A DNA stretch of 36,146 bases. Origin: Acetobacteraceae bacterium (GTDB lineage: Bacteria > Pseudomonadota > Alphaproteobacteria > Acetobacterales > Acetobacteraceae). The DNA is taken from assembly GCA_025055335.1 (NCBI GenBank), contig JANWXJ010000205.1, forward strand, positions 1-36,146. The letters run 5' to 3'. The notes under the pieces were generated by a model. That model ran no database searches and was not told where the DNA came from. It saw only the letters and a list, made by a program, of their open reading frames with translations. This document shows positions 2,805 to 11,130 of this stretch, piece after piece (position 1 is the stretch's first letter; the number at the start of each line of letters is the position of its first letter). Made by a program: the position numbers and the translations under genes.

Positions 2805-4886
2805 GTGGCGCGCACCCCGCTTGAGCGTATCCGCAACATCGGCATCACCGCGCACATCGACGCGGGCAAGACGACGACGACCGAGCGGATCCTGTATTAC
2901 ACCGGCAAGTCCCACAAGATCGGCGAGGTGCACGAGGGCAACACCACGACCGACTACATGGAGCAGGAGCGGGAGCGGGGTATCACCATCACCTCCGCCG
3001 CCGTGACCTGCGAATGGAAGGGCCACCGGATCAACATCATCGACACGCCGGGGCACATCGACTTCAACATCGAGGTGAACCGGTCCTTGCGCGTGCTGGA
3101 CGGCGCGGTGTTCATCATCGAGGGCGTGGCCGGCGTGCAGCCGCAGAGCGAGACGAACTGGCGGCTGGCCGACCGCTACAACGTCCCGCGCATCATCTAC
3201 ATCAACAAGCTCGACCGCACGGGCGCCGACTTCTACCGGGCCGCGGCGACGCTGACGGAGAAGCTCGGCATCGCCTGGGTGGCGCTGCAGCTGCCTATCG
3301 GCATCGAGGACACCTTCAAGGGTGTCGTGGACCTCGTGACGATGAAGGCGCTGATCTGGGAGGGCGACGAGCTCGGCGCCAAGTTCCGCGAGGCCGAGAT
3401 CCCCGACGACCTCAAGGAGAAGGCGGCGGAGTACCGGCAGAAGCTGCTCGACACCGCGGTCGCGGTGGACGAGGCGGCGATGGAGGAATATTTCGCCAAC
3501 GGCGACGTCTCGGTCGAGACGCTGAAGAAGTGCATCAAGAAGGGCACCATAAGCGGCGAGTTCCGCCCGGTGCTGTGCGGGTCCTCGTTCAAGAACAAGG
3601 GCGTGCAGCCGCTGCTCGATGCCGTGATCGACTACCTGCCCTCTCCGGTGGACGTCGAGGGCATCAAGGTCGCCCCGGCCGAGGGCCAGGACGAGGACAG
3701 CGAGCGCCGCATCATCCCGGTGCGCGAGGACGGGCCCTTCGCCGGCCTCGCCTTCAAGATCATCAACGACAAGTACGGCAACCTCACCTTCGTGCGCGTC
3801 TACTCGGGCGTGCTGCGCTCGGGCGACATGGTGCTGAACACCACCAAGGGCCACAAGGAGCGCATCGGCCGCATGTTCCAGATGCACGCCGACAAGCGCG
3901 AGGAGATCAAGGAGGTGTTCGCCGGCGACATCGCCGCCTTCGTCGGCCTCAAGGACACCCAGACGGGCGACACGCTGGCGAGCCCCGAGGATCCCGTCGT
4001 GCTCGAGCGCATGGCCTTCCCGGTGCCGGTGATCGACATCTCGGTCGAGCCCAAGACGAAGGACGCGATCGAGAAGATGACGCTCGGCCTGCAGAAGCTG
4101 GCGGCCGAGGATCCGTCGCTTCGCCTCAAGACCGACCAGGAGACGGGCCAGACCATCCTCTCCGGCATGGGCGAGTTGCACCTCGAGATCATCATCGACC
4201 GGCTGAAGCGCGAATACGGCGTGGAGGCGAACGTGGGCGCGCCGCAGGTGGCCTACCGCGAGACGATCACCCGCGCCCACACCGAGACCTACACCCACAA
4301 GAAGCAGACCGGCGGGTCGGGCCAGTTCGCGGAAGTGAAGATCGTCTTCGAGCCGCTCGAGCGGAACGCGGGCATCGTGTTCGAGAACGCCGTCGTCGGC
4401 GGCGCCGTGCCGAAGGAATACATCCCGGCGGTGGAGAAGGGCATCCGGACCCAGGCCGAGACCGGTGTGCTGGCCGGCTTCCCCACGGTGGACTTCAAGT
4501 TCACCCTGGTGGACGGCAAGTACCACGATGTCGACTCCTCGGCGCTGGCCTTCGAGATCGCGGCCAAGGCCTGCTTCCGGGAGGGCATGAAGAAGGCCGG
4601 GCCGGTCATCCTCGAGCCGATCATGGACGTCGAGGTGACGACGCCGCAGGACCATGTCGGCGACGTGGTGGGCGACCTGAACCGCCGCCGCGGCATGATC
4701 CAGAGCCAGGACATGGCGGGCACCTCCGTCATCGTCCGCGCGCATGTGCCGCTCAAGGAGATGTTCGGCTACATCTCCAACCTGCGCGGCATGACGAAGG
4801 GCCGGGCGTCCTTCTCCATGCAGTTCCACCACTACGAGCCCGTGCCGCGCAACGTGGCCGACGAGATCCTGAAGGCCTCGGCGTAG
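2805..4886 (+). CDS. fusA: Translation elongation factor G, probable paralog (EF-G2-like)
   Basis: GTG start with ggagg upstream; [47 protein letters not shown], full-length 693 aa through [29 protein letters not shown]. Confidence 0.93.
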
Positions 4887-10479: not shown

Positions 10480-10785
10480 ATGAGGTGGATGAACAAGCCC
10501 CGCTCCCGCCCCGTGATCGACATGACGCCGGAGGGCGAGTTCCGCGATCCGTCGCCGCCGCGCCGCCCCTGGCTCGACCGGGCGCTGGCGCGCGTCGGCG
10601 CCTATGCGGTGCTGGCGGCGGTGGTGGCGGGCGGCCTCGTCGTCGCGGCGCTCGCGGTGGTGTTCGCGGCGGTGCTGCTGCCGATCGCGCTGCTCGCCGG
10701 GGCGGTCGGCTTCGGCGCGCTGTGGTGGCGCGCCCGCCGCGCCCGGCGCGAGGGGCGGTCCTTCATCGTCGTCATCCGCCGCTGA
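10480..10785 (+). CDS. Small membrane protein (hypothetical)
   Basis: MRWMNKPRSRPVIDMTPEGEFRDPSPPRRPWLDRALARVGAYAVLAAVVAGGLVVAALAVVFAAVLLPIALLAGAVGFGALWWRARRARREGRSFIVVIRR; two TM helices, follows nfeD by 22 bp. Confidence 0.7.
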   Translation: MRWMNKPRSRPVIDMTPEGEFRDPSPPRRPWLDRALARVGAYAVLAAVVAGGLVVAALAVVFAAVLLPIALLAGAVGFGALWWRARRARREGRSFIVVIRR

Positions 10786-10795
10786 TCCGGCCCGG

Positions 10796-10809
10796 TTGAC
10801 CCGGATCAA
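10796..10809. promoter_or_regulatory. Candidate FNR/ANR/FixK-type box TTGACccggATCAA
   Basis: Exact TTGAY-N4-ATCAA dyad 57 bp upstream of the GTG at 10867; a weak -10-like cacagt lies at 10832-10837, consistent with class II (-41.5) geometry. Confidence 0.55.
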
Positions 10810-10866
10810 GGACGGCGGGACGAAGCCCGTGCACAGTCCGGCCGTCGCCGACGCAAGGAGATCCTG

Positions 10867-11130
10867 GTGAACCATCGTCATCGCAAGGTGCTGCACGCCG
10901 TCTTCGCGCACCCGCTGAACCACAACATCGACCCGACGCTGCTCCGCCACGTGTTCGAGGAACTCGGCGCCGATCTGCGGGAGACCGGCGCCGGCTCCAC
11001 CCAGGTGACGCTGAACGGCAAGGTGCGCGCGTTCCATCTCGGGCAGCATTCGGTGCCCGGGGAGGTGGTGATGCAGGTCCGCCACTTCCTGAAGGAGGCC
11101 GGGGTGGACCCGGCGGCCTACCCGGTGTGA
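10867..11130 (+). CDS. Small protein with HicA-like (dsRNA-binding-like fold) sequence pattern
   Basis: GTG start, SD aaggag; MNHRHRKVLHAVFAHPLNHNIDPTLLRHVFEELGADLRETGAGSTQVTLNGKVRAFHLGQHSVPGEVVMQVRHFLKEAGVDPAAYPV resembles the HicA pattern (khPl..ni....l...lGa.v.e.gGS...v.lng....hh........v..vr.fLkeaGi). Confidence 0.68.
   Translation: MNHRHRKVLHAVFAHPLNHNIDPTLLRHVFEELGADLRETGAGSTQVTLNGKVRAFHLGQHSVPGEVVMQVRHFLKEAGVDPAAYPV

What the first reader, a model, noticed from the sequence alone, without database searches (positions are those of the whole stretch)
10796..11130. Consensus FNR/ANR-type box directly upstream of a solitary HicA-like gene
TTGACccggATCAA matches the FNR/FixK/ANR dyad (TTGAY-N4-ATCAA). 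With the dyad centre at -41.5, the -10 would fall on cacagt (10832-10837), followed by SD aaggag and GTG. The gene encodes an 87-aa protein whose pattern resembles the HicA dsRNA-binding-like fold. Oxygen- or redox-controlled expression of a stand-alone HicA-like protein would be an unusual post-transcriptional regulator. Caveat: gatccgg(10784-10790)/ccggatc(10801-10807) also forms an overlapping hairpin that could be the terminator of the preceding operon.
Basis: partly seen in the sequence, partly recalled or inferred. Interest (0 to 1): 0.62.

Follow-up and report, generated by a model that had tools for sequence, protein, structure and literature searches.

The report
FNR-box-controlled solitary HicA-like gene family
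A small gene that looks like a toxin-family RNA-binding protein, but has no antitoxin partner, sits behind a low-oxygen-type genetic switch, and the same gene-plus-switch pair recurs across many related bacteria, which suggests a so far undescribed helper of the oxygen-limitation response.

Summary
TTGACCCGGATCAA (10796-10809) is an exact FNR/FixK-type dyad placed 71 nt before a GTG-started 87-codon gene (10867-11130). 68 of 94 distinct orthologs (Acetobacteraceae, Kaistiaceae, Devosiaceae, Bradyrhizobium, Pseudorhodoplanes, Caulobacteraceae) carry TTG[AC]N6[TG]CAA 55-100 nt before the start, against 0.3% of equal background windows and 0 of 38 sister HicA genes. In the orthologs an A/T-rich -10 lies exactly at box columns 36-41, the class II (-41.5) geometry. 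AlphaFold gives a confident alpha-beta-beta-beta-alpha model (pLDDT 93) whose best PDB match is a HicA. None of the 94 has a HicB within 1.5 kb; 37 of 38 sister genes do. The hairpin is not conserved (2 of 69) and has no T-run. The window's genome has the same box before ccoN, bchE, hsp20 and a CBS-domain gene. Open: which Crp/Fnr regulator acts in this genome (only a non-canonical one was recovered from an 84%-complete assembly), and what the protein does. The canonical HicA catalytic His is not conserved, but other His are. Most likely an oxygen-responsive RNA-acting protein domesticated from a HicAB toxin. New variant of a known kind.

The parts
10796..10809 (.). FNR/FixK-type dyad TTGACCCGGATCAA (centre 10802.5); followed by GGAC, which matches the conserved CAAGG[AC]C extension in orthologs
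   Evidence: Exact match; conserved position and sequence upstream of orthologs; known alphaproteobacterial FnrN/FixK consensus TTGANCNNGATCAANG (PMC4999443)
10832..10837 (+). inferred -10 element (cacagt), expected for a class II promoter with dyad centre at -41.5; inferred transcription start about 10844
   Evidence: Columns 36-41 of the box register are A/T-rich in 68 orthologs, best -10 offset 36; weak in this one sequence
10855..10860 (+). Shine-Dalgarno-like aaggag, 6 nt before GTG
   Evidence: Direct reading
10867..11130 (+). 87-codon solitary HicA-like gene (GTG start), alpha-beta-beta-beta-alpha predicted fold
   Evidence: homologous to HicA of HicAB pairs
10784..10807 (+). hairpin gatccgg/ccggatc overlapping the box; judged incidental, not a terminator
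   Evidence: No T-run; present in 2 of 69 orthologs with a box

Best explanation
The gene belongs to a chromosomal subfamily of HicA homologs that has left the toxin-antitoxin arrangement (no HicB) and come under a Crp/Fnr-family activator. The activator binds the box centred at -41.5 and recruits RNA polymerase at a class II promoter when oxygen (or a related signal such as NO) changes. The product, a small HicA/dsRBD-like protein, then acts on RNA, as an RNA-binding modulator or an atypical mRNA interferase that slows or reshapes translation during oxygen limitation. Shown by sequence comparison: box, its position, the -10 register, solitary state, separate clade; by modelling: the fold. Inferred: actual binding, direction and signal of regulation, and any action on RNA.
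For: Box in 68 of 94 distinct orthologs at -100..-55, 0 of 38 sister HicA genes; background 0.31% of 6440 equal windows; 79 of 95 with at most one mismatch. Class II -10 register. Box kept although neighbours change: CBS gene upstream and TRAP DctP gene downstream in many Acetobacteraceae, NfeD/membrane-protein genes upstream in the window, other genes in Bauldia, Devosia and Bradyrhizobium. Own genome has the same box before ccoN (TIGR00780), bchE (TIGR02026), hsp20, a Pyr_redox_2 gene and a CBS-BON gene; the bchE operon has a FnrL ChIP site and cbb3 oxidase genes are in the predicted FNR core regulon (PMC2908626). The site outnumbers the reversed control 5-22 to 0-2 in ten relatives. Canonical FnrN (CxxCx6-7C plus ETVSR-type helix) in most relatives tested that carry the gene. 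Fold: pLDDT 93.3, best PDB match 6g26_E HicA, TM 0.69 by target length. Clade separate from HicAB-type HicA with 100/92 support.
Against: No expression or binding data. No canonical FnrN found in the window's 84%-complete genome; the one clear Crp/Fnr protein there has a VEHANR helix and only CxxC. The position aligned with HicA's catalytic His is S in the window and mostly R/Q/K/H in orthologs, so RNase activity cannot be assumed. Some clades (Oceanicaulis/Woodsholea, Acidocella, Methylocystis plasmid) lack the box. The fold-search E-value is 0.13, so the PDB match is a rank, not proof.
Confidence: 0.6

Rival explanations
1. Same promoter logic, but the regulator is not oxygen-sensing FNR. 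It is an NO/heme- or otherwise-sensing Crp/Fnr paralog (FtrB-like, DNR-like, or the VEHANR type) that reads the same TTGA half-sites, so the gene belongs to a nitrosative or redox stress response.
For: Own genome and several near-complete genomes of one relative genus lack a detected canonical FnrN but keep the box and the site enrichment. In G175 and G332 an FtrB-like regulator with an ETLSR helix has two boxes in its own promoter region.
Against: Most box-bearing relatives tested do have canonical FnrN. In the window genome the box marks ccoN and bchE, which are low-oxygen genes.
Confidence: 0.25
2. The gene is an orphaned, still toxic HicA kept in check by FNR-type control instead of HicB: an oxygen-triggered growth-arrest toxin.
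For: Homology to HicA of functional-looking HicAB pairs. His57 and His61, which lie where the sister toxins have FHRPHP, are 88% and 98% conserved.
Against: No HicB nearby and none of two HicB Pfams in the incomplete genome, so leaky toxicity would be dangerous; the GSH catalytic His is not kept.
Confidence: 0.15
3. Solitary HicA-fold protein under FNR control that no longer acts on RNA: a His-rich adaptor or metal/protein-binding subunit of a microaerobic function.
For: Invariant His15 and near-invariant H3, H5, H10, H61; the canonical catalytic position is lost.
Against: The same residues would equally suit RNA contacts; the fold is the dsRBD-like one; no conserved partner gene across orders.
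Confidence: 0.2
4. The dyad is incidental: it is part of a terminator hairpin of the preceding NfeD operon, and the gene is expressed constitutively or by read-through.
For: A 7-bp stem overlaps the box.
Against: No T-run; hairpin in 2 of 69 orthologs; box conservation far above background.
Confidence: 0.03

Closest known systems
HicA toxins of HicAB systems (Pfam PF07927; PF05534 HicB partner), especially the sister clade with GSR...FHRPHP
   Same: Predicted alpha-beta-beta-beta-alpha dsRBD-like fold, size, alignable over the full length
   Different: No HicB, extra conserved N-terminal HRKxLHAxFAHP motif and DYPL-type C-terminus, canonical catalytic His not conserved, FNR-type promoter
Fourteen HicA genetic contexts surveyed by Gerdes 2024 (PMC10865869)
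   Same: HicA domain
   Different: None of the 14 classes is a solitary single-domain HicA under an oxygen-type regulator
Alphaproteobacterial FnrN/FixK/FnrL regulons (PMC4999443, PMC2908626)
   Same: Box consensus, GCAA/TTGC half-site variant (hemN site TTGCGcaggATCAA bound by FnrL), co-occurring targets ccoN, bchE, CBS-domain genes
   Different: No HicA-type member is named in the parts of these papers that I read; literature searches for HicA with FixK or FNR gave none
Class II FNR-dependent promoters (dyad centred at -41.5)
   Same: Spacing from dyad to -10 in 68 orthologs
   Different: Transcription start not mapped

Membership tests
HicA family (PF07927) | Profile match above the curated cut-off | tested here: not met
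   Window protein no hit; orthologs tested one by one reach up to 26.3 bits against cut-off 27; sister HicAs 36.6 and 42.6
HicA family (PF07927) | alpha-beta-beta-beta-alpha dsRBD-like fold | tested here: met
   Model pLDDT 93.3, elements H3-13 H23-32 E36-39 E45-49 E52-56 H65-77; best PDB match HicA 6g26_E, TM 0.69 by target length, E 0.13. Predicted, not solved.
HicA family (PF07927) | Catalytic His at the start of beta2 (GSH) | tested here: not met
   Aligned position is S44 in the window, mostly R/Q/K/H in orthologs (HicA3 alignment to the sister family; role of the His from PMC12297915)
HicAB toxin-antitoxin system | Adjacent or overlapping hicB | tested here: not met
   0 of 94 orthologs within 1.5 kb against 37 of 38 sister genes; no PF15919 or PF05534 in the 84%-complete genome
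FNR/FixK regulon | Box matching TTGAYN4RTCAA / TTGANCNNGATCAANG | tested here: met
   Exact match to the first; the second is the consensus given in PMC4999443
FNR/FixK regulon | Box conserved upstream of orthologs | tested here: met
   68 of 94 exact, 79 of 95 with at most one mismatch, background 0.3% and 5.6%
FNR/FixK regulon | Class II spacing to a -10 element | tested here: met
   A/T-rich columns 36-41 in orthologs, best offset 36; weak in the window itself
FNR/FixK regulon | A cognate regulator in the same genome | tested here: inconclusive
   Only a VEHANR-type Crp/Fnr protein clearly recovered in the 84%-complete genome; canonical FnrN in most relatives tested
FNR/FixK regulon | Oxygen-dependent expression lost without the regulator | not testable with these tools
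   Needs RNA or reporter data

The most novel reading that the evidence does not exclude
An alphaproteobacterial family of domesticated, antitoxin-free HicA homologs is a conserved member of the FNR/FixK regulon and works as an oxygen-responsive post-transcriptional regulator: a toxin fold turned into a housekeeping RNA regulator of the aerobic-to-microaerobic switch.
Probability: 0.4. Interest if true: 0.75.

Novelty: new variant of a known kind. Interest (0 to 1): 0.62.

Why it matters
FNR-type regulons are known mainly for respiratory and tetrapyrrole genes. A conserved RNA-toxin-fold protein in such a regulon would add a post-transcriptional arm to the oxygen response and would be a clear example of a toxin domain domesticated after losing its antitoxin. 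The family is present in cultured, non-model species (Neoroseomonas, Rubritepida, Bauldia), so both claims can be tested directly.

Tried and rejected
Terminator or hairpin reading: no T-run, hairpin in 2 of 69 orthologs. Direct family assignment of the window protein: no Pfam or PADLOC hit and no meaningful NCBIfam or PDB sequence hit. Literature searches for HicA with FixK, FNR or microaerobic conditions gave no report of this link. A search of the own genome with the FnrN N-terminus found nothing, but the assembly is incomplete, so this is not evidence of absence. Box belonging to the upstream CBS gene of relatives: 0 of 41 CBS genes have a box within 250 bp upstream of them, and the box lies between the CBS gene and the HicA-like gene, so it belongs to the latter. 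The plasmid tblastn query was a consensus-like sequence typed from the alignment, not a database protein. HicA-type hits outside Alphaproteobacteria in the phylum sample fall in the HicAB-type clade or in a boxless side branch, not in the box-bearing clade.

Full report
What is there. The box TTGACCCGGATCAA lies at 10796-10809, ten bases after the stop codon (10783-10785) of a small membrane-protein gene that follows an SPFH/NfeD pair. It is the only TTGAYN4ATCAA dyad in the window. The assembly (2.92 Mb, 84% complete) has seven TTGAYN4RTCAA sites against one for the reversed control. A GTG-started 87-codon gene follows at 10867-11130 with an aaggag six bases before it.

The other boxes of this genome are telling. 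They lie before ccoN (TIGR00780), bchE (TIGR02026; the frame is broken further on in the assembly), hsp20, a Pyr_redox_2 gene and a CBS-BON gene; only one, at the 3' end of a tryptophan dioxygenase gene, looks misplaced. The bchE operon has a FnrL ChIP site in Rhodobacter sphaeroides, and cbb3 oxidase genes and a UspA gene are in the conserved alphaproteobacterial FNR set of the same paper, PMC2908626. A working FNR-type regulon in this genome is therefore likely.

Ortholog test. Three seed sequences found relatives in 99 of 398 family genomes and 80 loci in the genome collection. Two groups appear. Tier 1 (MNHxHRKxLHALFAHPxxxN...DYPL) is solitary; tier 2 (GSR...FHRPHP) is followed by hicB, mostly with overlapping ends (PF05534). 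HicB lies within 1.5 kb in 0 of 94 tier-1 and 37 of 38 tier-2 loci. The box is present at -100..-55 in 68 of 94 tier-1 genes and in none of 38 tier-2 genes anywhere in the 300 bp upstream. In equal background windows 0.31% have an exact match and 5.3% have exactly one mismatch, while tier 1 reaches 79 of 95 with at most one mismatch. The tree separates the tier-1 side from the tier-2 side with 100/92 support and places the window gene, on a long branch, in a subclade with Rubritepida and Roseococcus. Column conservation drops outside TTGATCCGGCGCAAGG[AC]C, so the signal is not simply recent common ancestry, although related sequences do count more than once.

Promoter geometry. In register with the box, columns 36-41 are 61% A/T against 20% for columns 16-35, and 36 is by far the commonest best offset for a TATAAT-like hexamer. 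That is where a -10 must lie if the dyad is centred at -41.5, i.e. a class II activator promoter. In the window the hexamer is cacagt at 10832-10837, so the inferred start of transcription is near 10844. The competing hairpin has no T-run and recurs in only 2 of 69 orthologs.

Which regulator. Seven of eight relatives tested first, and many of 23 further genomes tested, have a canonical FnrN with CxxCx6-7C and an ETVSR-type recognition helix. In the own genome, and in several near-complete genomes of one relative genus, the best Crp/Fnr match instead has VEHANR and only CxxC, yet five such relatives keep the box and show 9-22 sites against 0-1 control. G175 and G332 also have an FtrB-like regulator (ETLSR) with two boxes in its own promoter region. 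Oxygen is thus the likely but not the proven signal, and the regulator in this genome is unidentified.

The protein. AlphaFold2 on 87 homologs gives mean pLDDT 93.3 and a helix followed by alpha-beta-beta-beta-alpha. The best PDB match is the Burkholderia pseudomallei HicA (6g26_E, TM 0.69 by target length), with a Thermus thermophilus protein (1whz) third; E-values are not significant by themselves. Pfam HicA_toxin matches 23 of 87 alignment members at E up to 1, including two sister HicAs above the cut-off and several orthologs just below it. The residue aligned with the catalytic His of HicA (PMC12297915; alignment) is S44 here and mostly R/Q/K/H in tier 1. His15 (100%), His61 (98%), His10 (95%) and His57 (88%) are conserved instead. 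So it is related to HicA, may work like a dsRBD-type RNA-binding protein, and is not a member of a HicAB system.

Novelty. A 2024 survey lists 14 genetic contexts of HicA domains, none of them a solitary single-domain gene of this kind (PMC10865869). Searches of the open literature found no link between HicA and FNR or FixK. I therefore rate it a new variant of a known kind: an antitoxin-free HicA-like subfamily under FNR/FixK-type control. What the protein does remains an inference.

Noticed in passing
L002, L003, L023-L050 and others; e.g. L002:387-2495: In many Acetobacteraceae the HicA-like gene lies between a CBS-domain gene and a TRAP-type DctP gene (gap about 45-140 nt); the box follows the CBS gene and the CBS gene has no box of its own. 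The downstream DctP gene could be co-transcribed.
   Followed up: partly
L007/L255 (G000 C173), L237-L242, L247-L249: A Crp/Fnr regulator with VEHANR recognition helix and CxxC...RPFALF N-terminus is the best Crp/Fnr match in the window's genome and in several near-complete genomes of one relative genus in which no canonical FnrN was detected but TTGAYN4RTCAA stays enriched. It may have taken over the FNR-box regulon.
   Followed up: partly
L251 (boxes 1067 and 1161) and L252 (1044 and 1139): An FtrB-like Crp/Fnr gene (ETLSR helix) has two FNR-type boxes about 95 bp apart in its own promoter region.
   Followed up: no
L004, L005, L144-L157 and relatives: A large clade of HicB-paired HicA proteins has GSR or GSA in place of the canonical GSH, with a conserved FHRPHP after beta3; either the catalytic His has moved or these HicAs work differently.
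   Followed up: no
L017:2601-3932: The window's genome carries bchE with an FNR-type box 71 nt before its start, and the bchE frame is broken near 3247 (assembly error or real).
   Followed up: partly
L136: A tier-1 ortholog with a one-mismatch box is followed closely by a gene that reads like a truncated haemoglobin.
   Followed up: no
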